A DNA stretch of 20,260 nucleotides from a virus, in IMG/VR virus record IMGVR_UViG_3300028284_000038, positions 1 to 20,260 of that record. The stretch is one strand, 5' to 3'. Below are positions 1 through 19,693 of the stretch, piece after piece. Every line of letters begins with the position of its first letter. The first letter of the stretch is position 1. A program made the position numbers and the translations under genes. The notes beneath the pieces are model-generated. The model saw only the letters and a list, made by a program, of their open reading frames with translations. It was not told the origin of the DNA and searched no databases.

Positions 1-308
1 ACGATGTCTACGAACTTAGGTAGAATAGGAACGGGTGTCCAATCCAGGTTTAGATATGACAAGTCACCATCAACGGCTAGTTCATTTTTATACTTAGCAA
101 CTGATTGCTCTCCTCTTGCGTATAAACGCAGCCTATGGAAGTCTCTCCATTGGTCATAATATCTACATCCGTTCCCATCTTTCTTAAACCACTCGTATTG
201 AATAGCCTGTCCGATCTGTAATCCGAATTCATCTGTTGCTTTCTCAGCATCAGATACAAACTGACTTGGAAACCCTGCAGATGATATGTCAATTTTTACG
301 TCTCTCAT
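1..308 (-). CDS. Portal protein, N-terminal part (runs off the left edge)
   Basis: An open frame starts with ATG at 308 and stays open to base 1, giving 102 codons with no stop. The ATG overlaps the terL stop as ATGA, the usual coupling for adjacent phage genes. The translation begins MRDVKIDISSAGFPSQF and contains the stretches YARGEQSVAKYK and NLDWTPVPILPKFVDIV, which I recognise from portal proteins of Bacteroidetes phages, including crAss-like ones. Portals form the dodecameric ring at the capsid vertex through which DNA is packaged and ejected, and terL followed directly by portal is the standard order. The rest of the protein, and presumably the capsid genes, lie beyond the left edge. 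The family call rests on remembered sequence similarity plus position; the reading frame itself is secure. Confidence 0.78.
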   Translation of the reverse strand, partial: MRDVKIDISSAGFPSQFVSDAEKATDEFGLQIGQAIQYEWFKKDGNGCRYYDQWRDFHRLRLYARGEQSVAKYKNELAVDGDLSYLNLDWTPVPILPKFVDI

Positions 309-2566
309 CTAATAATTTCGCTTATTGTACCCTTGTTACTATACCTTGCAAAGTTAATCTTTATTTTTGAAACATTTTGCTTAGGTACATACAGGTGTCT
401 TTGTGTTGCCATTATAGCTAACCCTGATGAAATAGTTGCATCAAAGTTAGTTCTGTTACTAATATCAAACTTTGCCCAATCCTCTAGAGTTCTAGTAAAT
501 ATACACTCTCCCATCTCTTCTGCAGATTTCATACCTATATGATTATCGATATAAGACTCTATAGCAGAAGCGTGTGATTGTTTTACATCTTCACTTGAGT
601 TAGGAATACCCCCTAATTCTTTTTCAGTTTTAGACAATTTATTGTAATGCTTATCAGGTCTGTTCATACAGAAACCTCTATATCCTCTATTCTTAAAATG
701 ATACAATAATCTTGGCTTATTATTTTCTATTAAAATTGGCATACCATAAAACACACAAGCCATTAAAACATCTTCAAAAAATATCTCTGCCGTTTGTGGT
801 CTTGCTATGTATTCTAAAAAGAATGTATTCGTAGGTGCGTTGTCCATATGAAACATAGTCTTGCCGTGGAGTGCACCGTTAGATCCACCTCCCCCAACTA
901 CTCCTGATATATCATAACTATCACAACCAAATGCACCTATATGATCGTTGCCAGGAAACTTGACTCCATTTTTTACTAATACTCTATTCTGTAATGCTTT
1001 TTCAGGAGTCCATCCTATATAAAACCTTCCTCTATCGTTAGGAGTAAAAATAACTTCACTATCCTTTATACCATTCTTCCAGGACATACTTCCTCTTGTG
1101 AGGTGGTGTGCCATTATAAGAGAATCATTATAGTCTATTTGCTGATATATCTTTGTAAGATTAAATATAGACTGCTTACTTTCATCTCTAAATGCGTGAG
1201 ACTCAGTTCTTGGAAATTGACGGTAATATTCATTTAAAGCATCGGCATCATTCTTTAAAGAATCTACTTCGTTTTGCCAATAGTTTAGTGCACCCTGTTC
1301 AATCATTTCCCCATCAATACCCAATACGGGTAATTCAGGTGTTTCAAAAACAGGCATTCCATAACGATCAATGAATCCTTCCATATTCCATTCCATAGGA
1401 ACGAAAAGTGAATATAGTCCGCTTTTAGTTTGACCATTTGAGTTTCTTTCAATTACATTAGAGTCGCTATATAAGTTTTTAAAATTACCACCCCCCTTGC
1501 TTAATGCATTTGAAGTTGATCCCATCATACATTTTCCTATAATCTTACTACCTAATCGCAAACAAGTTTTAGTAACACGCCAATTGTTTAAAATATTATT
1601 AGGCTTGATCCATTTTCCACTTTCATCGTGAACTAAAAGTAGTAGCTTTTCACCATCATAACTGTTGTCGTCTGTGTTCTTCCAATCTATTGTGGTATCT
1701 AGTCCATATAACTCATCGTCATTGGAATCAAACATATTTTTTTTTGTAATCTTAGATGCAGGAATCCTAAAAGCTAATTCAGTTTTAGGTTTATCCATAC
1801 CATCCATAATGGGCTTAAAGAAAAAAGGTAGTCTACTATTAATAGGAACTACTTTATCTGTAAACATTTTCTTAGCATCACTACCTGTCTTTGATAAGAT
1901 ACCAACCCTGGAATCTTTAGCTAAAGTACCTGTGTTAACACATTCAGATGATGACATAAAAGAAAAACCTGAACGTCTGATCTTTAGGTAAATCATTCCA
2001 AAGCTTCTTTTATCCGCCTTACAGGCTTCCCAAAAAATAAATAACAAACGATTAGCTTCCCTGAAGTCGGGATATCCAACATCAATACTAGTCCATTGAA
2101 GATACATATAATGAGATCCTGTTATATATGTAGGTTTTCCGTTAGACATAAACCAATGCCCATCATCTCTTCTATCAAATTCAGTTTCAACATAGTCCAC
2201 CCAACGCTGCTTAAATTCTGTAGCCATTTCATTCCATTTGAATATAGACTGAATTTTATCTAAAGCTTTAGGTATTTCTTGACGTTCCCAATATTGTTCT
2301 GTTGCCTTCTTGTGTCTTTGAACACAATGTTTTGGTGCTAAGGGTAAAGCAATACGAAGCCCTTGAATTATTATAACCTCACCTATCTCACCTGTTTTAG
2401 ATATAACAATAAAGTCGTACTTAGAGTCGTAGCCATATGCCCAGGTCTTAGCCTTATTCTTGTTAGTTAAGACTGACTTGGGTACAACATCTTTTAGTGT
2501 TGTAAATAAACTACTGTGCTCTACGTTCTGCAAATCCTTGTTTTGTATCTGTTTTACTTGGACCAT
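305..2566 (-). CDS. terL: Terminase large subunit (ATPase and nuclease)
   Basis: 753 aa DNA-packaging motor. In order: a deviant Walker A at about residues 195-202 (KIRRSGFS), with the basic residues ahead of the usual lysine place much as in lambda-type terminases; Walker B at 308-315 (LLLLVHDE, D314 E315); a probable coupling motif at 349-352 (GSTS); then an RNase-H-like nuclease domain with candidate metal ligands D549 (GAFGCDSYD), E614 (ILIENN) and an acidic residue near D674 (SYIDN). The length is usual for TerL. The start at 2566 gives a 56-bp out-of-frame overlap with the upstream gene; the next Met is residue 113, inside a conserved-looking region, so the first ATG is preferred. The stop overlaps the portal ATG. 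The sequence recalls terminases of crAss-like and other Bacteroidetes phages. Catalytic residues are inferred by motif, not by alignment. Confidence 0.93.
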   Translation of the reverse strand: MVQVKQIQNKDLQNVEHSSLFTTLKDVVPKSVLTNKNKAKTWAYGYDSKYDFIVISKTGEIGEVIIIQGLRIALPLAPKHCVQRHKKATEQYWERQEIPKALDKIQSIFKWNEMATEFKQRWVDYVETEFDRRDDGHWFMSNGKPTYITGSHYMYLQWTSIDVGYPDFREANRLLFIFWEACKADKRSFGMIYLKIRRSGFSFMSSSECVNTGTLAKDSRVGILSKTGSDAKKMFTDKVVPINSRLPFFFKPIMDGMDKPKTELAFRIPASKITKKNMFDSNDDELYGLDTTIDWKNTDDNSYDGEKLLLLVHDESGKWIKPNNILNNWRVTKTCLRLGSKIIGKCMMGSTSNALSKGGGNFKNLYSDSNVIERNSNGQTKSGLYSLFVPMEWNMEGFIDRYGMPVFETPELPVLGIDGEMIEQGALNYWQNEVDSLKNDADALNEYYRQFPRTESHAFRDESKQSIFNLTKIYQQIDYNDSLIMAHHLTRGSMSWKNGIKDSEVIFTPNDRGRFYIGWTPEKALQNRVLVKNGVKFPGNDHIGAFGCDSYDISGVVGGGGSNGALHGKTMFHMDNAPTNTFFLEYIARPQTAEIFFEDVLMACVFYGMPILIENNKPRLLYHFKNRGYRGFCMNRPDKHYNKLSKTEKELGGIPNSSEDVKQSHASAIESYIDNHIGMKSAEEMGECIFTRTLEDWAKFDISNRTNFDATISSGLAIMATQRHLYVPKQNVSKIKINFARYSNKGTISEIIR

Positions 2567-2792: not shown

Positions 2793-2871
2793 TCTTAATA
2801 CGTTTTACTTTTTTTATTGGATAGTTCTCTTCATTTAACTCATCCATAAAATCCCATTCACGACTATTCAT
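2701..2871 (-). CDS. Small hypothetical protein, 56 aa, overlapping the next gene
   Basis: The ATG at 2871 overlaps the TAG stop of the oxygenase gene by 8 bp (ATGAATAG), and the frame runs to TAA at 2701. The first 26 codons fill what would otherwise be an empty gap (MNSREWDFMDELNEENYPIK, acidic); the last 30 codons overlap the following 93-aa gene in another frame and are basic and low in hydrophobic residues. The N-terminal part looks like a real protein and the start/stop overlap is typical here. The long out-of-frame overlap is a reason for caution. Function unknown. Confidence 0.45.
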   Translation of the reverse strand: MNSREWDFMDELNEENYPIKKVKRIKNEHKRNKIRNNQGRSRGGQATDQGSEGADY

Positions 2872-3343
2872 CACTTATATTTTTTTTTAAAAAAACAACT
2901 TGAATCAATCTAGCATTAGTGTGGTGTCCGTAATTATCATATATATTTCTTGAATGGTATAAGTTTGAATTAAAAACAATAAGCCTATTAAACTTAGCTT
3001 TTAATATACAACTCTTATCACCTTCATAATAAAGTGTAGTTCCATCCTCTTCAGGAGGTTTTTCATTTAGAAACAATATGGCAGTTAAGTCACCCATCAT
3101 TTCATCCGTATGAATAAAATTAGGTTCTTCTTGAAGCCAAGGTGAACATCTAACAAAGTTTAAGTCGGGTGTATAGTTAGGATACTTTTCAAATAAAAAC
3201 TCTACTAACTCGTCTACACCCCTAGCCTTTACATTTTGGAATAAATCTTCACCAATTAAAATATCTTCAAAACCTTCTTTTAAGATATCTTCTTTATAGG
3301 ACTTTACATCTACAATAACATTTTCATATAATCCTATATTCAT
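2864..3343 (-). CDS. 2-oxoglutarate/Fe(II)-dependent oxygenase (prolyl-hydroxylase-like)
   Basis: 159 aa, about the size of a minimal double-stranded beta-helix oxygenase. The metal-binding triad is visible: H78 and D80 in FIHTDEMMGDLTAILFLN, and H130 in FNSNLYHSRN, with R145 (NARLIQVVF) in the place of the arginine that binds the 2-oxoglutarate carboxylate. The stretch DGTTLYYEGD between them matches the usual pattern of prolyl-4-hydroxylase-like enzymes. Such enzymes use O2 and 2-oxoglutarate to hydroxylate a substrate, often a protein side chain. The start overlaps the stop of the upstream GroES-like gene by 4 bp (ATGA), so the two are probably translationally coupled. The substrate cannot be read from the sequence; a virion or host protein is possible. 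No signal peptide is seen, so it should be cytoplasmic. Confidence 0.82.
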   Translation of the reverse strand: MNIGLYENVIVDVKSYKEDILKEGFEDILIGEDLFQNVKARGVDELVEFLFEKYPNYTPDLNFVRCSPWLQEEPNFIHTDEMMGDLTAILFLNEKPPEEDGTTLYYEGDKSCILKAKFNRLIVFNSNLYHSRNIYDNYGHHTNARLIQVVFLKKNISDE

Positions 3344-3903
3344 AGCTTTATAGTTATTTGATGATCAAACATTCTATATATTTTTTCGCCATCTACTTCA
3401 AACTCATATTCACTACCAGGTTTAAAGGTAATCTTATCACCCGCTCTTACGCCTTTTGAAGTTAGGAAATCATTTGGATACTTCATTATACCAACTAATG
3501 GCTCTTCGCTAATTGGTTTATAAATATAAGAATCCTCTACATCTACAGGCAATACAAAACAATACCTGTCGTGTGAGTTCCATCCGTTTTTATTTTTATA
3601 CAAATAAAATTGATCGTCCTCAACAAAAAACAAGTCGTCCTTAAAAAAGCTTTTACCGCTCCTTTGCTTACCTTTTATGTCGTTGTAATATTTGAAAACA
3701 TTGTGGTGTACTAGAAGCGTATCACCAATACCAATGGGACCTTTGTAGTCTATTGGAAGTTGTATAACCTCAGCCTCTCTATTTGAGAACCTAAAGTCTT
3801 CTTGCGAGGTGCTAATAATTAAATCAATTCCTGCAACTTTTTTTGTGTTGTTATATCGCCTCCCCTTTAATGGTTTAACAATAAAACAGAATGGTGATTT
3901 CAT
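3340..3903 (-). CDS. Tandem GroES-like (co-chaperonin-fold) protein
   Basis: 187 aa. The N-terminal half follows the GroES pattern: FIVKPL at 7-12, a loop followed by GIDLIIS, then AEVIQLP, then IGIGDTLLVHHNVFKYY (compare VKVGDIVIF in GroES). After a linker with KSFFKDDLFFVEDD, the C-terminal half repeats the pattern with GIMKYPNDFL, GVRAGDKITFKPGSEYEF and VDGEKIYRMF. I infer two GroES-type beta-barrels in one chain, a protein type I recall as GroES-like in marine phages. It is distinct from the short GroES next to groEL near 17.6 kb. It lies in the fibre/packaging operon and overlaps the oxygenase gene by 4 bp. It may cap a chaperonin, or be a virion-assembly factor using the same fold; the sequence does not decide. 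Confidence 0.6.
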   Translation of the reverse strand: MKSPFCFIVKPLKGRRYNNTKKVAGIDLIISTSQEDFRFSNREAEVIQLPIDYKGPIGIGDTLLVHHNVFKYYNDIKGKQRSGKSFFKDDLFFVEDDQFYLYKNKNGWNSHDRYCFVLPVDVEDSYIYKPISEEPLVGIMKYPNDFLTSKGVRAGDKITFKPGSEYEFEVDGEKIYRMFDHQITIKL

Positions 3904-6935: not shown

Positions 6936-7199
6936 TTACTTAATTTGTTTTTTTAAATCCTCTACCTCTTTAGTAAGTTCTTTAATAGCTTCAATTAAGA
7001 CTCCTACCATATTGCCATAAGCAACTGACTTGTACTCTTCACCATCTAATACAAGTTCAGGTAGAACTTTCTCAACTTCCTGTGCGATGACTCCTAAGCC
7101 ACGTTCACCGTCCTTGTCAAAGCTAACACCTCTAAGAGCATTAACCTTCTCTAAAGCGTTAGGAATAGTCTCTACGTTTGATTTAAGCCTTTCATCAGA
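6936..7199 (-). other. Peptidase S74 chaperone domain of the long fibre
   Basis: Residues 1370-1456. The S-x4-K dyad (S1370, K1375 in SDERLK) is intact, as are the ERGLGVIAQEVEKVLPELV core and the EAIKELTKEVEDLKKQIK coiled coil. Cleavage before S1370 is predicted from the known family. Confidence 0.88.
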
Positions 7200-10100
7200 G
7201 TATGCAGTTAAGTTTCCTGTTGCAGTAAAGCTTCCTGTATAAGACCCCGACATAGAAACAGTAACACTACCCGATGCTCCTCCTCCTGTTAACCCATTGC
7301 CTGCAGTTACACCTGTAATATCTCCCGTGTTGGTTGTGTATCCTGCCCCGTTTGCAATAGTCTTGTTATCTAACGCAATGTTAGCTGAACCATCAAAGGA
7401 AACGCCTGCAATAGTTCTAGCAGTCTGTAATCGAGTTGCAGTTCCTGCATTACCGCTAACAGTTGTTTGCACAACATTAGGAGAGGTATTGCTAAATACA
7501 GTTCCTGTTAATGCTAATCCCGATCCTGCGGTATAGGTTGTGTTATTATCTGTTGTTTTGTAACCACTATCATTAGTCCATTGGCTAATATTTCCACCTT
7601 TATTTGTAAAGGTCTGACTATTGGAAGCAGTTGTTGTACCTGTATTAGTTGTGTAACCTCTTCCGTTAGATATTTGATTGTTGTTGGTTACGTTTGTTGC
7701 ACCGTCAGCTACATTTAGTGCTAATCTTGCTGCTGCTGCAGTATAAGAACGACCATAACTATCACTTCCATTTGTACCCGTAAATAATTTCATTCCTGAA
7801 GCTATACCTGAAGTACTAAATGTCCCTGAACCATTGAAATATGATGCGTGTAAATAACCGTTTGAGGTTCTTTGTGCTATTGTGTTACTACTCTCGGATG
7901 CTGATACTGTACCTGTAACAGTTCCTGTGTTGGATGTGTATCCCGCACCGTTTGTAATGTTAGCGTTGTTCAATGCAATGTTAGCAGTACCATCAAAGGA
8001 AACGCCTGCAATAGTTCTTGCATTTTGTAATTTAGTTGCTGAACCTGCATTGCCGCTTACTGTTGTTTGCACAACATTAGGTGCTGCATTACTAAAGACT
8101 GTGCCTGTTAATGTTATACCCGAACCCGCAGAATAAGTTGTGTTGTTGTCTGTTGTCTTGTAACCACTATCATTAGTCCATTGAGAAATGTTACCCGACT
8201 TATTAGTAAATGTTTGAGTATTACTTGGAGTAGTAGTTCCTGTATTAGTGGTATATCCTGCACCATTAAGAAGCTGCTTATTGTCTGTAATTATATTCGT
8301 ATTACTAAAGACCGTACCTGTTAAAGCCAACCCTGCTCCTGCACTATACGTTGTATTAACGTATGAGGTTATATAACCCGCACCATTGGTAATATTTTTA
8401 TTGTCTAAAGATATATTGGCAGAGCCATCAAAAGAAACGCCCGCTATTGTTCTTGCGTTTTGTAAGACCGTTGCACTCCCTGCATTTCCTGTAATTGTAG
8501 TCTGAACAATATTAGGTGCAGCATTACTAAAGACCGTTCCTGTTAAAGTTATACCCGACCCTGCAGAATAAGTTGTATCAACATATGAGGTTATATACTT
8601 AGAATCATTAGTCCATTGGCTAATATTTCCGCCTTTGTTTGTAAACGTCTGTGCGTTGCTTGCAGTAGTTGTACCTGTATTAGTTGTATAACCTGCACCA
8701 TTAGTTATGTTGCTATTGTTTAGCGTAATATTAGCAGTACCATTAAAAGATACTCCTGAAATTGTTCTAGCATTTAATAGCTTAGTTGCAGATCCTGCAT
8801 TACCCGTTATTGTAGTCTGAACAATATTAGGTGCAGCATTACTAAAGACTGTACCTGTCAACGTTATACCTGATCCCGCAGAATAAGTTGTATCAACATA
8901 TGAGGTTATATACTTAGAATCATTAGTCCATTGAGATATAGCACCACTTTTATTTGTAAAAGTCTCTGTGCTACTTGGAGTTGTAGTTCCTTGTGGTATA
9001 CTAAATGATGTAGTTAAAGTACCACCATCTTGTTGTGTTAATGTTAAAGTCTTTGTTGAAGATCCACTATCAGAAAATCCTGTAATCATATTGTCATATG
9101 CAGAATTAGATTCTGTTGATCCACCACCACTCCAGGTTACTGCACCACCAACAGTTAAAGCATTTGTACTGCCATTAAATGTTAATCCTGCATCACTTGT
9201 TACATTAGTTGATCCATTCCAATATGCTACTCTTCCTGATGAACCACTACCTGTTACGTTTCCTACTTGAGTGTTATCTATTTTCTGCCAAGCATCTGTA
9301 GCCAGGTCAGAGAATACTGCCCAATCACCTACTGCCCAATCAGTAATACCATCTAAGTTTGTAGAACCTGCAGTAGAAACAATATAGTATTCACCTGGAG
9401 TTCCTTTAGCACTAGCCAACGCAGGTACGTTAGTAGCTGCATTCCAGGTTCCTATATATTTCAATACACCTGTTACCGCAGAATTAATTGCAGTTTGTAT
9501 TTGAGCACCTGTAGCTAAATTAGCAGAAGAGGAATTTACCGCTCCTGTAATTGCGTTTACTGTTGGTGTCGCACCTGCCGTAACAGAAATTCTATTTGCA
9601 GTACCGCTTACACTTGTAACAGTTCCCGTTGTGCTTGAAGTACCTGCACCAATAAGGGTTCTTACTTCTGCAGCAGAGATGCCTGAGTTTAAAGATGGTG
9701 TTGTTCCGTTAGATAATATTGCAGGCGTACCTGTGTCAGTTACTTTTTTAGTATTATCAACAATAGCAGTTGCCTGAGCACCCGTTATAGTTGTTGTGTT
9801 ACCCGCCATTGCGGTTGATGCCGTTGTGCCTATAGCAAGACTAGAAGTGCCTGCACCAATAAGGGTTCTTACTTCTGCAGCACTAATACCTGTATTTAAA
9901 CTAGGCACGGTTCCGTTTGATAACATCGCAGGCGTACCTGTATCTGAAACCTTAGCCGTGTTGTTTGTAATTGCAGTTGCCTGAGCACCTGTGATCGTTG
10001 TTGTATTACCCGCCATTGCGGTTGATGCCGTTGTGCCTATTGCGAGACTTGTATATCCCGCAGGGTTGGTGGCATTGTAAGGAGTAAATCCTAACCCCCC

Positions 10101-11306
10101 TGTTACGTCTGCACTTGTTAGTGCTAATTTACCCCCAAGAGTAAGATTTCCTGTAGAAGTAACTGTACCGCTTAACGATATTCCGCTTATGGTTCCTGTA
10201 CCTCCAACGCTTGTAACTCCTGCACTACTTGAAGTCCCCGCACCGATAAGTGTTCTAACCTCGGCTGCACTAATTCCTGCATTTAACGATGGTGTTGTGC
10301 CATTCGATAGTATTGCAGGTGTACCTGTGTCTGAAACCTTAGCGTTATTTGTAGTAATATTAGAGGCTTGTGTTGTAGTAATCCCAACCTTAGCCGTGTT
10401 AGCCGTTATAGCACTTGCCTGTGCTGAGGTTATTGTTGTTATGTTACCTGCCTTCGCAGTTGTTGCCGTTGTGCCTATAGCTAAAGTAGTATACCCTGAA
10501 TCATTAGTCCATTGAGATATAGCACCCGACTTGTTTGTAAATGTTTGTGTACCTGATAAAGTTGCTACAGTAGCATCTATAGTAATGTTGTCAGCATTTG
10601 CAGTAATACCTGTTCCGCCAATAACATTTAAAGTAACCGCTCCACTTGTTCCTCCTCCCGTCATTCCTGTTCCCGCAACAACACTTGTTATATCCCCTTG
10701 AGGAATAGAAGGAAAGGCAATTAGGTTACCAAGACCATTAACATATTGTGCTGCAGTTCCTGCCATTGTAATAGCAAGAGTCCCTGAAGCAGTAACCGCA
10801 CTCCCTGCGGTAAATGCATTGCCTGCGTGAGATATCCCAACACTTGTTACTGTACCTGTATTAGTAGTATACCCTGCACCATTGGTAATATTTTTATTGT
10901 CTAAAGATATATTAGCACTTCCATCAAAGGAAACACCCGCTATATTCCTGGCGGTTTGAAGTACCGTTGCACTCCCTGCGTTACCGCTAACAGTTGTCTG
11001 CACAACATTAGGAGCAGTATTACTAAATACAGTACCCGTTAATGCTAAACCCGACCCTGCGGTATAGGTTGTATTTACATATGAAGTTATATACTTCGAA
11101 TCATTAGTCCATTGAGATATATTCCCCGACTTATTAGTTAAGGTATTAGTCGATGAAGATGTAATATACCCCGCACCATTTGTCAACGTATTGTTGTTGG
11201 TTGGAATAGTTGTATCTGTAAAAGCATTAAGTCCTAACTCTACGCCATCCACCTTAATGGTGGAGGCGACAGAGATGGGTTGCTTGAATTGAATAAATTC
11301 AGCCAT
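6936..11306 (-). CDS. Long tail fibre/adhesin with peptidase S74 intramolecular chaperone
   Basis: 1456 aa. The unique N-terminus (MAEFIQFKQPISVASTIKVD) is followed by two families of repeats. Family A occurs near both ends, with SQWTNDS six times, GVSF(D/N)G(S/T)ANI five times and NGxGY eight times. Family B in the middle has GISAAEVRTLIGAGTSS three times. Between them is a non-repeated domain (GVLKYIGTWNAATNVPALAS, DAWQKIDN). The last 87 residues are an S74 chaperone: SDERLK puts the autocleavage serine at S1370 and its partner lysine at K1375, followed by GVIAQEVEKVLPE and a C-terminal coiled coil. S74 domains trimerise the fibre and then cut themselves off. The repeats suggest a long shaft that binds host-surface polysaccharide or protein. 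It is co-directional with three other fibre-like genes. Confidence 0.88.
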   Translation of the reverse strand: MAEFIQFKQPISVASTIKVDGVELGLNAFTDTTIPTNNNTLTNGAGYITSSSTNTLTNKSGNISQWTNDSKYITSYVNTTYTAGSGLALTGTVFSNTAPNVVQTTVSGNAGSATVLQTARNIAGVSFDGSANISLDNKNITNGAGYTTNTGTVTSVGISHAGNAFTAGSAVTASGTLAITMAGTAAQYVNGLGNLIAFPSIPQGDITSVVAGTGMTGGGTSGAVTLNVIGGTGITANADNITIDATVATLSGTQTFTNKSGAISQWTNDSGYTTLAIGTTATTAKAGNITTITSAQASAITANTAKVGITTTQASNITTNNAKVSDTGTPAILSNGTTPSLNAGISAAEVRTLIGAGTSSSAGVTSVGGTGTISGISLSGTVTSTGNLTLGGKLALTSADVTGGLGFTPYNATNPAGYTSLAIGTTASTAMAGNTTTITGAQATAITNNTAKVSDTGTPAMLSNGTVPSLNTGISAAEVRTLIGAGTSSLAIGTTASTAMAGNTTTITGAQATAIVDNTKKVTDTGTPAILSNGTTPSLNSGISAAEVRTLIGAGTSSTTGTVTSVSGTANRISVTAGATPTVNAITGAVNSSSANLATGAQIQTAINSAVTGVLKYIGTWNAATNVPALASAKGTPGEYYIVSTAGSTNLDGITDWAVGDWAVFSDLATDAWQKIDNTQVGNVTGSGSSGRVAYWNGSTNVTSDAGLTFNGSTNALTVGGAVTWSGGGSTESNSAYDNMITGFSDSGSSTKTLTLTQQDGGTLTTSFSIPQGTTTPSSTETFTNKSGAISQWTNDSKYITSYVDTTYSAGSGITLTGTVFSNAAPNIVQTTITGNAGSATKLLNARTISGVSFNGTANITLNNSNITNGAGYTTNTGTTTASNAQTFTNKGGNISQWTNDSKYITSYVDTTYSAGSGITLTGTVFSNAAPNIVQTTITGNAGSATVLQNARTIAGVSFDGSANISLDNKNITNGAGYITSYVNTTYSAGAGLALTGTVFSNTNIITDNKQLLNGAGYTTNTGTTTPSNTQTFTNKSGNISQWTNDSGYKTTDNNTTYSAGSGITLTGTVFSNAAPNVVQTTVSGNAGSATKLQNARTIAGVSFDGTANIALNNANITNGAGYTSNTGTVTGTVSASESSNTIAQRTSNGYLHASYFNGSGTFSTSGIASGMKLFTGTNGSDSYGRSYTAAAARLALNVADGATNVTNNNQISNGRGYTTNTGTTTASNSQTFTNKGGNISQWTNDSGYKTTDNNTTYTAGSGLALTGTVFSNTSPNVVQTTVSGNAGTATRLQTARTIAGVSFDGSANIALDNKTIANGAGYTTNTGDITGVTAGNGLTGGGASGSVTVSMSGSYTGSFTATGNLTAYSDERLKSNVETIPNALEKVNALRGVSFDKDGERGLGVIAQEVEKVLPELVLDGEEYKSVAYGNMVGVLIEAIKELTKEVEDLKKQIK
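7320..8960 (-). repeat. Family A fibre repeats, C-terminal block
   Basis: The plus-strand string cattagtccattg recurs near 7571, 8171, 8605 and 8921 (and again near 10501 and 11101 in the N-terminal block), each inside a longer near-identical unit. The blocks 8512-8630 and 8821-8940 are almost the same over about 120 bp and lie 309 bp apart. In protein the units read SQWTNDS, YSAGSGITLTGTVFSN, VQTT, NAGSAT, ARTI and GVSFDG. Confidence 0.85.
9640..10345 (-). repeat. Family B fibre repeats, three copies
   Basis: Copies near 9640-9746, 9848-9953 and 10237-10342 encode DTGTPA(I/M)LSNGT, PSLN and GISAAEVRTLIGAGTSS. They are separated by SLAIGTTASTAMAG- and TITGAQATAI-type linkers. Confidence 0.82.
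10500..11170 (-). repeat. Family A fibre repeats, N-terminal block
   Basis: Two further SQWTNDS units (near 10501 and 11101) flank one copy of the GVSFDGSANISLDNK segment. The same unit therefore brackets the family B block, giving an A-B-A layout. Confidence 0.75.
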
Positions 11307-17107: not shown

Positions 17108-17539
17108 ATGCAAGATTACCTGAAATATTGGAGGGTAATACGGTACTTTATCAAAGCAAAGTACGGACTTACGACATCTGACCTAGACATATTACTATTC
17201 CTACAATCTGAAAAATATTTTTCTAAAGATGACTTCGATGAGTTCAACGAACTTATTAGTTGGGATAAGAACAGGTTTAATACCTTACTAAAAGATAAGT
17301 GGATTGAAGTGTTTAGAAAAAACACATCCAAGTCTAAGGCAGTATACCAACTATCATATAAGTCTACTAGAGTATTGGTATCCCTTTATAAAAAACTAAA
17401 TGGAGAAGAGATTCCTGAGAGTCCCTCCTCCAATCCTTTGTTTTTAAAGAATGTTTCATACACCGATAAGGTATACAGAAACTATATAAAAGAAATGAAT
17501 TCCTTTATTCGACAACAACGACATCTCTCTCAGAAATAA
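17108..17539 (+). CDS. Winged-helix (MarR-like) DNA-binding protein, putative regulator
   Basis: 143 aa, and the only protein gene read on the plus strand. The stretch YWRVIRYFIKAKYGLTTSDL, then DILLFLQSE, DDFDEFNELISWDKNRF, LLKDKWIEVFRK and KAVYQLSYKSTRVLVSLY follows the helix-helix-recognition helix-wing order of MarR-type winged helices. I recall close relatives in Bacteroidetes phages. The C-terminal part (NVSYTDKVYRNYIKEMNSFI) is helical. It starts 25 bp after a TATCTTTG element in the palindrome shared with the divergent operon, which makes autoregulation plausible. Its 3' end overlaps groES convergently by 35 bp. The regulator role is inferred from fold and position. Confidence 0.7.
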   Translation: MQDYLKYWRVIRYFIKAKYGLTTSDLDILLFLQSEKYFSKDDFDEFNELISWDKNRFNTLLKDKWIEVFRKNTSKSKAVYQLSYKSTRVLVSLYKKLNGEEIPESPSSNPLFLKNVSYTDKVYRNYIKEMNSFIRQQRHLSQK

Positions 17540-17762
17540 TCGTGCATTGTTTAGACTTTATTACCATAGTATATCCCGCTCTTGAGTCGTAATATATAAT
17601 GTCATCTGCTTTAATTACAGTTACATCAGTTCCAGGAACAAGCACCTTGGCTTTTTTGTACCTGATGTCTGCAGCATCGTCTGCTGATAATAAAAGTCCT
17701 GAGTCAGTCTTGATCTCTTCTTTTATTTGGTCTACTAAAATATATTTTCCTATTGGTTTCAT
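17505..17762 (-). CDS. groES: Co-chaperonin GroES (phage-encoded)
   Basis: 85 aa, slightly shorter than the 97 aa of E. coli GroES. The visible order is GroES-like: YILVDQI, a mobile-loop segment KTDSGLLLS (compare the KSAGGIVLT loop that binds GroEL), then KAKVLVPGTDV, IKADDIIYYD and a closing CTIISERDVVVVE strand. It overlaps the groEL stop by 4 bp (ATGA), so it is translated with and after groEL, the reverse of the usual bacterial groES-groEL order. Its 3' end overlaps the convergent winged-helix gene by 35 bp. It should form the lid of a folding chamber with its partner. Confidence 0.85.
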   Translation of the reverse strand: MKPIGKYILVDQIKEEIKTDSGLLLSADDAADIRYKKAKVLVPGTDVTVIKADDIIYYDSRAGYTMVIKSKQCTIISERDVVVVE

Positions 17763-19360
17763 TTGTCTTCGTATGTTCTTGCCATTGTTACAATAGCGTT
17801 AGTTGATAGTAATGTTACCGCAACAGATACTGCGTTTTGAAGTGCAGACCTTGTTACCTTAAATGGATCTATTACTCCCATCTTAAACATATCTCCCCAT
17901 TCTCCTGACTTTATGTTTAACCCTTCATTACCGTTGTCGTACATAAGTTTGGTTTGCTGATCTTCAGATATCTCTATTCCTGCATTGGTATAAATCTGTT
18001 CTAAGGGAGCACGAAGTGCTCTCGCTAACATTTTTCCTGCAACCTGGTAGTTGTCATCCTCTATATATGTTGCGATTTTATATAAGGCTACCCCTCCACC
18101 TGCAACAATACCCTCTTCAAGGGCAGATCTAACTGCACATACTGCATCATCAACACGATCATACAGTTCTTTTTGCTCTAGGTCGGTGTTACCACCTACT
18201 GATATTACGCCAACCCCTCCCGTTAATGATGCGATTCGAGACAGGATAAAGTCTTTATCGGCTTTTTGCTTTGCATTCTGTACGCTTTGCTTCAATTGCT
18301 TAACTCTTTCTTTAACCAATTCCCCTGTCTCTTCCTCGTTTTTAATGATGACGGTCGAATCACGACCAACTATCACCTTGGCAGCGTGACCCAAATCCTC
18401 TAACGTCATCAATGATAAGTCATCCCCTGTTTTCTCAGAGAAATAAGTTGCTCCAACACTAACTGCAATATCCTGCATTAGTTCGTGTTGCTTGTAACCA
18501 AATGACGGTGGTCCTATAGTACACAACTTCAAGCTATTTTTCATAACATTAGCAGCTAGTGTGCTAACAACATTTGCTGAGGTTGGTGCAATAATTAAAA
18601 GCTTTAGTCCTTCCTGGATTACAGGCTTTAAAACATTTTCTATGTTAAGTAGATTTTCAATTGGTGCATCTGATACCAGGATTCTTACATCCTCCATAAC
18701 GCACTCATCTTTCTTTTGATCATTAATAAATAATGGAGACTCATATCCACGATCAATCTTTAATCCGTGAGTGGTTTCAAAATATGTTTCGTTGGATTCA
18801 CTCCGTGCAACGGTAACGATACCATTCTCACCAACCTTCTTATATACGTCTGATATAATCTTACCTATATTACTGTCGTTGTTTGCAGAGATCGTTGCAA
18901 TATCCTTGAGCCGAGAGGCAGATACTTTGCGGCTCATTCGTTTTAGATCCTGGTCAATAATTTGATTGGTATAAGTAACAAGGTCTCTTAATACTTTAGT
19001 CTTATTTGTAGCAGGTGTGATAAGTTCTGCTCCCGCATTAATTAATGCTTCTGTAAGAACAATAGCCGTTGTAGTTCCATCACCTGCCTGAGTAGCCGTT
19101 CGTGATGCAGCCTCTTTCATTATTCGCACCGCAAGGTGCTCTGTGGGATCCAATAGCGAAATTGATTTTGCTACTGTAACTCCATCCTTTGTAACTGTAA
19201 TTCCGTGGGTGTGTTGAGGTGACTCTATTAGCACCGTCTGACCGTGAGGTCCCAAGGTAGACTTAACTGCTTTAGCTAAAGTTTTAATTCCCTTGTAAAG
19301 CTTCTTTCTTCCTTCATCGTCAAATAATAAATTGACAGGCGAGTATCCTAGTTCTGACAT
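17759..19360 (-). CDS. groEL: Type I chaperonin GroEL (phage-encoded, divergent)
   Basis: 533 aa. Equatorial ATP-site motifs are intact: TLGPHGQTVLIE at 35-46, TKDGVTVAK at 57-65 (D59), GDGTTT at 93-98, the catalytic Asp pair in DRVDDAVCAV at about 401-410, and GIVAGGGVAL near 417-426. The apical domain (about 190-370) is divergent: YESPLFIN replaces YLSPYFIN, the acidic IAEDVEGEAL helix of E. coli becomes IAPTSANVVSTL, and the nearly invariant KAPGFG becomes GPPSFG. The C-terminus ends TYEDK without the GGM tail. It should be an active ATPase with altered substrate or co-chaperonin contacts. It is the first gene of a two-gene operon with its own promoter at 19396. Confidence 0.95.
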   Translation of the reverse strand: MSELGYSPVNLLFDDEGRKKLYKGIKTLAKAVKSTLGPHGQTVLIESPQHTHGITVTKDGVTVAKSISLLDPTEHLAVRIMKEAASRTATQAGDGTTTAIVLTEALINAGAELITPATNKTKVLRDLVTYTNQIIDQDLKRMSRKVSASRLKDIATISANNDSNIGKIISDVYKKVGENGIVTVARSESNETYFETTHGLKIDRGYESPLFINDQKKDECVMEDVRILVSDAPIENLLNIENVLKPVIQEGLKLLIIAPTSANVVSTLAANVMKNSLKLCTIGPPSFGYKQHELMQDIAVSVGATYFSEKTGDDLSLMTLEDLGHAAKVIVGRDSTVIIKNEEETGELVKERVKQLKQSVQNAKQKADKDFILSRIASLTGGVGVISVGGNTDLEQKELYDRVDDAVCAVRSALEEGIVAGGGVALYKIATYIEDDNYQVAGKMLARALRAPLEQIYTNAGIEISEDQQTKLMYDNGNEGLNIKSGEWGDMFKMGVIDPFKVTRSALQNAVSVAVTLLSTNAIVTMARTYEDK

Positions 19361-19388
19361 TTGATTTATGATTTAATTATATTTACTG

Positions 19389-19396
19389 CAAAGATA
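19389..19396 (-). promoter_or_regulatory. Bacteroidetes-type promoter -7 element (TATCTTTG) for groEL-groES
   Basis: Minus-strand TATCTTTG, 28 bp before the groEL ATG at 19360, in an otherwise non-coding region. No clear -33 element at 17-23 bp. No CIRCE-like heat-shock inverted repeat was seen between it and the ATG. Confidence 0.66.
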
Positions 19397-19439: not shown

Positions 19440-19600
19440 ATGTCTAATTCATTATGTCGCTTTTTAAAGTCTCTATAGAGTAGTAGTAGTAGTAGTAGTA
19501 TATTTTTTTATCCCCTAGAAAAAATGAAAAAAAAACGACATTATCGACATCCTATTGATTATCAGTAATTTACTCGACACAAAAACGACACAACAATGTC
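19440..19600. repeat. Gene-free region with repeated CGACA/ATGTC motifs and a (TAG)6 run
   Basis: CGACA occurs at 19536, 19545, 19575 and 19586 on the plus strand. The inverted form TGTCG is at 19455, and further ATGTC copies begin at 19440, 19454 and 19596. Between the two groups lie six TAG units (19481-19498) and an A/T tract. No reading frame here looks coding. The pattern could be iterons, operator sites or chance in biased sequence. Confidence 0.5.
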
Positions 19601-19606
19601 AATAAT

Positions 19607-19680
19607 CTGCCCATAGTTCAGTTGGATAGAACAACTCACTTCTAATGAGTAGGTCCCAGGTTCGAATCCTGGTGGGCAGA
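19607..19680 (+). tRNA. tRNA-Arg (anticodon TCT)
   Basis: A complete cloverleaf can be drawn. The acceptor CTGCCCA pairs with TGGGCAG over 7 bp, the D stem is GTTC/GAAC, the anticodon stem ACTCA/TGAGT encloses CTTCTAA with TCT at 19641-19643, and the T stem CCAGG/CCTGG encloses TTCGAAT. The discriminator is A and CCA is not encoded. It would read AGA/AGG codons, which an A/T-rich phage uses often. It is on the plus strand, opposite to nearly all genes here. Confidence 0.95.
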
Positions 19681-19693
19681 CAAAAGTTTAAAA

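What the first reader, a model, noticed from the sequence alone, without database searches (positions are those of the whole stretch)
17505..19396. Phage carries a complete but divergent GroEL/GroES pair in reversed order
GroEL has intact ATP-site motifs but an altered apical domain: the acidic helix replaced by APTSANVV, and GPPSFG where KAPGFG is near invariant. GroES follows groEL instead of preceding it, and the pair has its own TATCTTTG promoter. Phages with both partners are uncommon. The altered apical face suggests a dedicated substrate (capsid, terminase or the huge fibres) or refusal of host GroES.
Basis: partly seen in the sequence, partly recalled or inferred. Interest (0 to 1): 0.62.

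Follow-up and report, generated by a model that had tools for sequence, protein, structure and literature searches.

The report
Phage chaperonin with two different lids
This bacterial virus carries its own protein-folding chamber (GroEL), a small lid protein (GroES) and, unnoticed at first, a second double-length lid protein like one otherwise known from chloroplasts; the chamber's lid-docking surface is rewritten in the same way in every relative examined, so the virus probably runs a private folding machine for its own proteins.

Summary
The groEL and groES genes are real, complete and in reversed order. They belong to a large environmental phage clade: 81 relatives' GroELs were examined and hundreds more matched. 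Reversed order holds in 78/78 relatives; in 77/77 cellular loci groES comes first. The ATP site is intact. Helix I is not lost; only the loop before it changed. A careful tree puts this GroEL in a phage-only group with Elemovirus and Maribacter phage Panino, not among hosts.

Its predicted fold best matches chloroplast Cpn20, a tandem double Cpn10. Its C-half is clearly Cpn10 by sequence, its N-half only weakly. It was found in 29/30 related records.

Most likely this is a private group I chaperonin for morphogenesis proteins with its own lid proteins. A mixed Cpn10+Cpn20-type lid is possible but untested. New variant of a known kind.

The parts
17759..19360 (-). groEL: phage group I chaperonin, 533 aa
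   Evidence: Pfam PF00118 E 7e-57; PHROG 5725 E 8e-138; AlphaFold2 model pLDDT 83.7, best PDB matches are GroEL, E about 1e-47; omega 0.03-0.22 within the clade
18614..18652 (-). apical helix H of GroEL (residues 237-249), containing E241 = E. coli L234
   Evidence: helix in the model; E in 100% of 81 relatives, L/V/I in 77 cellular GroELs
18536..18577 (-). apical helix I of GroEL (residues 262-275), containing A269, A270 = E. coli V263, V264
   Evidence: helix in the model; A, A in 100% of the clade
17505..17762 (-). groES: short co-chaperonin, 85 aa, mobile loop kept, roof loop short
   Evidence: Pfam PF00166 E 5e-10; alignment; found in 30/30 related records
3340..3903 (-). cpn10B: second, 187-aa co-chaperonin-like protein, predicted tandem double Cpn10 (Cpn20-like), upstream of the terminase
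   Evidence: PHROG 13932 E 1e-21; model pLDDT 78.5; best whole-length fold match 7ekq_R = Cpn20 subunit, VIA Z 9.4 over 156 residues; found in 29/30 related records
19389..19396 (-). TATCTTTG promoter-like word 29 bp before the groEL start
   Evidence: 7 in the window against 1.6 expected, 6 of 7 just upstream of ORFs
305..2566 (-). terminase large subunit, conserved downstream neighbour of cpn10B
   Evidence: PHROG 6681 E 4e-175; same neighbourhood in MW202828, Elemovirus, phi38:1 and Panino
17108..17539 (+). small convergent gene (PHROG 17028; relative annotated 'repressor protein' in MW202828), 3' end overlapping groES by 35 bp
   Evidence: convergent in 77 relatives, 3' ends overlapping in 73 of them

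Best explanation
The window carries a private group I chaperonin system of a roughly 60-kb podovirus, most likely of Bacteroidota. A GroEL ring with a normal ATPase core has a lid-docking and substrate groove rewritten to suit the phage's own co-chaperonins rather than the host's. The phage encodes two such lids: the short GroES next to groEL, and a double-length Cpn20-like protein encoded in the packaging gene cluster. The system probably folds one or a few abundant virion proteins, the major capsid protein being the first candidate by analogy with T4 gp31 and gp23. SHOWN by sequence or prediction: the genes, conserved catalytic residues, invariant groove substitutions, conserved reversed order, phage-only phylogeny, purifying selection, and the second co-chaperonin gene with a predicted tandem Cpn10 fold.
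For: Catalytic ATP-site residues conserved in all 81 clade GroELs. In E. coli the GroES loop IVL contacts L234, L237 and V264 (PMC3514286); the clade has E, L, A there without exception and the 77 cellular GroELs never have E234 or A264. N265, whose change to Ala blocks GroES binding (PMC3514286), is 100% conserved. Phage GroES keeps the mobile-loop glycine and hydrophobic triplet. The GroEL model folds as GroEL. A careful tree gives the clade 100/100 and its union with Elemovirus and Panino 99/96, apart from all cellular GroELs. cpn10B found in 29/30 and short groES in 30/30 records. Among 11 other GroEL-bearing phages PHROG 13932 was found only in Elemovirus, phi38:1 and Panino. Omega is low for all three genes.
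Against: No experiment, and no complex was predicted, so docking of either lid is unproven. L234E, V263A and V264A also make the substrate site less hydrophobic, which could mean altered substrate choice rather than lid choice. Elemovirus GroEL keeps L234 although it too has both lids, so L234E is not required for the two-lid arrangement. Co-occurrence of lids and GroEL could reflect shared ancestry of the genomes. The Cpn20-likeness of the N-half rests on a predicted fold; its sequence match to GroES is weak (E 0.0024).
Confidence: 0.6

Rival explanations
1. The long co-chaperonin-like protein is not a GroEL lid: it uses the GroES fold in packaging or head assembly, or caps another seven-fold ring such as host ClpP, as Cpn11/20/23 do in the Chlamydomonas ClpP complex 7ekq. 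Only the short GroES serves the phage GroEL.
For: It lies upstream of terminase and portal in every group seen. Its best structural match is a Cpn20 chain solved in a ClpP complex. In the window clade its C-half has only a short loop where a mobile loop should be. It carries an unexplained invariant His-His-Asn.
Against: The N-half keeps a mobile-loop-like GIDLIIS / GIEFIVS segment. In annotated phages examined it was found only with groEL (one search is inconclusive because contigs end early). In phi38:1 it is not among the genes labelled structural.
Confidence: 0.25
2. The phage GroEL works largely without a lid, like the phage EL chaperonin, and the groove changes reflect a specialised substrate.
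For: Phage EL chaperonin does not work with E. coli GroES and showed no encapsulating state (PMC7185714). Inter-ring residues K105, R452 and V464 are not conserved here. The groove is less hydrophobic.
Against: A GroES with an intact mobile loop is kept in 78 of 80 loci and 30/30 long records. N265 and L237 are invariant. GroEL is 38% identical to E. coli GroEL, far closer than EL (22%, PMC7185714).
Confidence: 0.12
3. Recent capture of a host groEL operon, or an assembly chimera.
For: None found beyond general plausibility.
Against: Best cellular GroEL about 41% identical; phage-only clade with 100/100 support; same arrangement in 78 independent loci; host order is the opposite.
Confidence: 0.01

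Closest known systems
GroEL/GroES of Podoviridae sp. ctfjg026 (MW202828), Flavobacterium Elemovirus and Maribacter phage Panino
   Same: groEL followed by groES; a second, about 180-aa Cpn10 relative upstream of terminase; deletion at E. coli D253. Panino also has E at 234.
   Different: MW202828 is a member of the window's own clade (59.5% GroEL identity). Elemovirus and Panino GroELs are about 37% identical; Elemovirus keeps L234.
Cellulophaga phage phi38:1 (Callevirus) GroEL, Cpn10 and gp089 'co-chaperonin GroES'
   Same: Has groEL, a short Cpn10 and the long co-chaperonin directly before terminase
   Different: groES precedes groEL; GroEL position in the tree unresolved; long loop in the C-half of gp089
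Chloroplast Cpn60 with Cpn10 and Cpn20
   Same: One chaperonin served by both a single and a tandem double co-chaperonin; best whole-length fold match of cpn10B is Chlamydomonas Cpn20
   Different: No close sequence relation; in the window clade the C-half lacks a clear mobile-loop triplet; co-chaperonin activity untested
T4 gp31 co-chaperonin
   Same: Phage-encoded lid with GroES fold and reduced roof loop
   Different: T4 has no GroEL and uses the host's; gp31 has a longer mobile loop, and here the roof is only about four residues shorter than in flavobacterial GroES
Phage EL (gp146) and AR9 chaperonins
   Same: Phage-encoded Cpn60 relatives
   Different: Far more divergent (AR9 24% identical to the window's GroEL); Pfam Cpn10 was not found in AR9, and EL does not use E. 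coli GroES (PMC7185714)

Membership tests
Group I chaperonin (Cpn60/GroEL) | Cpn60 family profile over the full length | tested here: met
   PF00118 E 7e-57, positions 1-488 of 490
Group I chaperonin (Cpn60/GroEL) | ATP-binding and catalytic residues (D52, D87, T89-91, D398, D495) | tested here: met
   All present in the window and in 100% of 81 relatives
Group I chaperonin (Cpn60/GroEL) | GroEL subunit fold with apical helices H and I, no built-in lid | tested here: met
   AlphaFold2 model and Foldseek
Group I chaperonin (Cpn60/GroEL) | Hydrophobic GroES/substrate contacts L234, L237, V264 | tested here: not met
   E, L, A in the whole clade: departs from canonical GroEL, though other group I features are met
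Group I chaperonin (Cpn60/GroEL) | Seven-membered double ring with lid-dependent folding | not testable with these tools
   Inter-ring residues vary, but assembly needs experiment
Cpn10/GroES (17505-17762) | Cpn10 profile above the curated cut-off | tested here: met
   39.6 bits against cut-off 21.1
Cpn10/GroES (17505-17762) | Mobile loop with Gly and hydrophobic tripeptide | tested here: met
   G24 100%, L/I-L-L type triplet
Cpn20-type tandem co-chaperonin (3340-3903) | Two Cpn10 domains head to tail in the fold | tested here: met
   Predicted model aligns to Cpn20 7ekq_R over 1-187 (Foldseek E 4e-5; VIA Z 9.4, 156 residues, rmsd 4.8). A prediction, not a solved structure.
Cpn20-type tandem co-chaperonin (3340-3903) | Both halves recognisable as Cpn10 by sequence | tested here: inconclusive
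   C-half hhalign E 1e-7, and above the Pfam cut-off in phi38:1; N-half E 0.0024 only
Cpn20-type tandem co-chaperonin (3340-3903) | A mobile loop in each half | tested here: inconclusive
   N-half has GIDLIIS; C-half loop is short without a clear triplet in the window clade, longer in phi38:1
Cpn20-type tandem co-chaperonin (3340-3903) | Co-chaperonin activity with a Cpn60 | not testable with these tools
   Needs purified proteins

The most novel reading that the evidence does not exclude
These phages run a chaperonin with a mixed lid: three tandem Cpn20-like subunits plus one single GroES make seven modules, as proposed for algal and plant chloroplasts but arisen separately in a virus lineage, on a GroEL whose docking groove no longer accepts host GroES.
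Probability: 0.22. Interest if true: 0.78.

Novelty: new variant of a known kind. Interest (0 to 1): 0.55.

Why it matters
Phage groEL/groES pairs are known, but in the papers I could search I found no account of a phage with two different co-chaperonins, one of them a tandem Cpn20 type, nor of a natural GroEL whose lid pocket carries a fixed L234E. If it works as proposed, related phages with isolated hosts (Elemovirus, phi38:1, Panino) make three questions testable: why a lid would be doubled, how lid specificity is switched, and which virion proteins need a private folding chamber.

Tried and rejected
Host capture or chimera: rejected by identity, trees and synteny. 'Acidic helix replaced': rejected, helix I is predicted present. 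Roof deletion as a gp31 hallmark: toned down, since flavobacterial GroES roofs are already short. TANNTTTG alone is not enriched (22 against 26 expected); only TATCTTTG is. The long protein against PDB by sequence gave only weak GroES matches, so fold comparison was needed. N-half against C-half of the long protein by profile: no significant match. Starting from the long gene, 5 of 11 contigs hold groEL; the six without end within about 9 kb upstream, while the usual groES-to-cpn10B distance is about 6-17 kb, so this is inconclusive. The quick tree put phi38:1 with the clade (93); the careful tree leaves it unresolved (42/62), so that claim is dropped. First residue table was off by one in numbering and was redone. 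The main survey of viral chaperonins (Marine et al. 2017, doi 10.1038/ismej.2017.102) is not held, so whether it mentions long co-chaperonins could not be checked.

Full report
OBSERVATION. The window is a 20,260-base IMG/VR virus record. On the minus strand, groEL (17759-19360, 533 aa) is followed by groES (17505-17762, 85 aa) with a 4-bp overlap. Both pass curated Pfam cut-offs.

RELATIVES. The closest annotated phage is MW202828 (Podoviridae sp. ctfjg026, 60.85 kb, 59.5% GroEL identity), with the same order, groEL then groES. In IMG/VR 418 stretches matched, the best at 77% identity. Among the 80 kept, groES lies downstream of groEL on the same strand in all 78 where it was found (gap -17 to 3552 bp, median 166), while groES precedes groEL in all 77 cellular loci where GroES was found. 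Elemovirus and Panino share the reversed order; phi38:1, immuto and DAC20 do not. The order is a lineage feature, not a rearrangement of this contig.

PHYLOGENY. In a careful tree the window's clade has 100/100 support, and its union with Elemovirus and Panino 99/96, apart from all cellular GroELs. phi38:1 is unresolved. Long branches are present, so deeper joins are tentative.

APICAL DOMAIN. In E. coli numbering, all 81 relatives have L234E, E238K, V263A, V264A, D283Y, K286H and a deletion at D253; Y203L is at 91%, A258V and A278P at 99%. The 77 cellular GroELs keep Y203, a hydrophobic 234, V/I263 and a hydrophobic 264. In the E. coli complex the GroES loop tripeptide contacts L234, L237 and V264 (PMC3514286). 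L237 and N265 are kept. Inter-ring residues K105, R452 and V464 are not conserved, so ring stacking may differ; this is inference. Panino also has E at 234; Elemovirus keeps L.

SHORT GroES. The mobile-loop glycine and hydrophobic triplet are kept. The roof loop is nine residues shorter than in E. coli but only about four shorter than in flavobacteria, and Tyr71 is replaced. T4 gp31 also lacks the roof loops and makes a larger chamber, which is thought to help fold the capsid protein gp23 (PMC6318259). The parallel is suggestive only.

SECOND CO-CHAPERONIN. Window 3340-3903 encodes 187 aa matching PHROG 13932 'co-chaperonin GroES' (E 1e-21). Its relatives lie upstream of terminase in MW202828, Elemovirus, phi38:1 and Panino. 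It was found in 29 of 30 related records of 42-65 kb, and the short groES in 30 of 30. Of eleven other GroEL-bearing phage genomes, PHROG 13932 was found only in Elemovirus, phi38:1 and Panino. Its model (pLDDT 78.5) best matches chain R of 7ekq over the whole length (Foldseek E 4e-5; VIA Z 9.4, 156 residues, rmsd 4.8). The PDB names that chain 'Cpn20 co-chaperonin subunit'. The C-half is Cpn10 by profile (E 1e-7; above the Pfam cut-off in phi38:1). The N-half is weak by sequence (E 0.0024), but aligns with GroES through the mobile-loop region and the following GD strand. Some public records already name relatives 'co-chaperonin GroES' or 'cpn10', and the Panino paper reports GroEL and GroES homologs (PMC11590407). 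What I did not find in the papers searched is the tandem nature or the two-lid arrangement.

SELECTION. Omega is 0.03-0.22 for groEL, 0.03-0.14 for groES, and 0.05 for the one cpn10B pair measured: all three appear maintained.

PROMOTER. TATCTTTG occurs seven times against 1.6 expected. Six copies lie just before ORF starts on the right strand, one of them groEL's. It resembles the Bacteroidota -7 element (own knowledge), which together with the flavobacterial hosts of the relatives suggests a Bacteroidota host; this is inferred.

MECHANISM. Most likely a private group I chaperonin with its own lids. In chloroplasts Cpn10 and Cpn20 can form mixed lids, probably of seven modules, and some are active only when mixed (PMC5780408, PMC4242682). 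A three-plus-one mixed lid is therefore a natural but untested reading here. The capsid protein is the first candidate substrate by analogy with T4.

VERDICT. A real, conserved, phage-specific chaperonin system of a known kind. The pair itself is not new in kind. The fixed rewriting of the lid pocket and the second, tandem co-chaperonin make it a new variant worth testing.

Noticed in passing
window 3340-3903; also L003, L105, L106: Invariant His-His-Asn (residues 66-68) in the N-half of the long co-chaperonin across four phage groups; reason unknown.
   Followed up: no
window 17505-17539: groES and the small convergent gene overlap at their 3' ends by 35 bp; the overlap is seen in 73 of 77 relatives that have the convergent gene.
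   Followed up: partly
record of L009 (IMGVR_UViG_3300023210_000033, 62,424 bp), 2432-2986 and 61739-62299: Two different copies of the long co-chaperonin gene (74% and 68% identical to the window's) in one record, about 2.6 kb apart if the genome is circular.
   Followed up: no
window 2864-3343: Small protein with a weak 2OG-Fe(II) oxygenase match (below the Pfam cut-off) between the long co-chaperonin and terminase genes; a relative lies at the same place in L084.
   Followed up: no
window 6936-11306: 1456-aa repetitive fibre protein ending in an S74 (chaperone of endosialidase) domain, i.e. with its own built-in folding aid.
   Followed up: no
window 19607-19681: tRNA-Arg (TCT) gene upstream of groEL on the opposite strand; a run of TAG-type triplets lies just before it at about 19480-19500.
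   Followed up: no
L158: A contig filed as Streptomyces griseus (a MAG) carries a GroEL that groups with Bacteroidota, probably a mislabelled metagenome bin.
   Followed up: no
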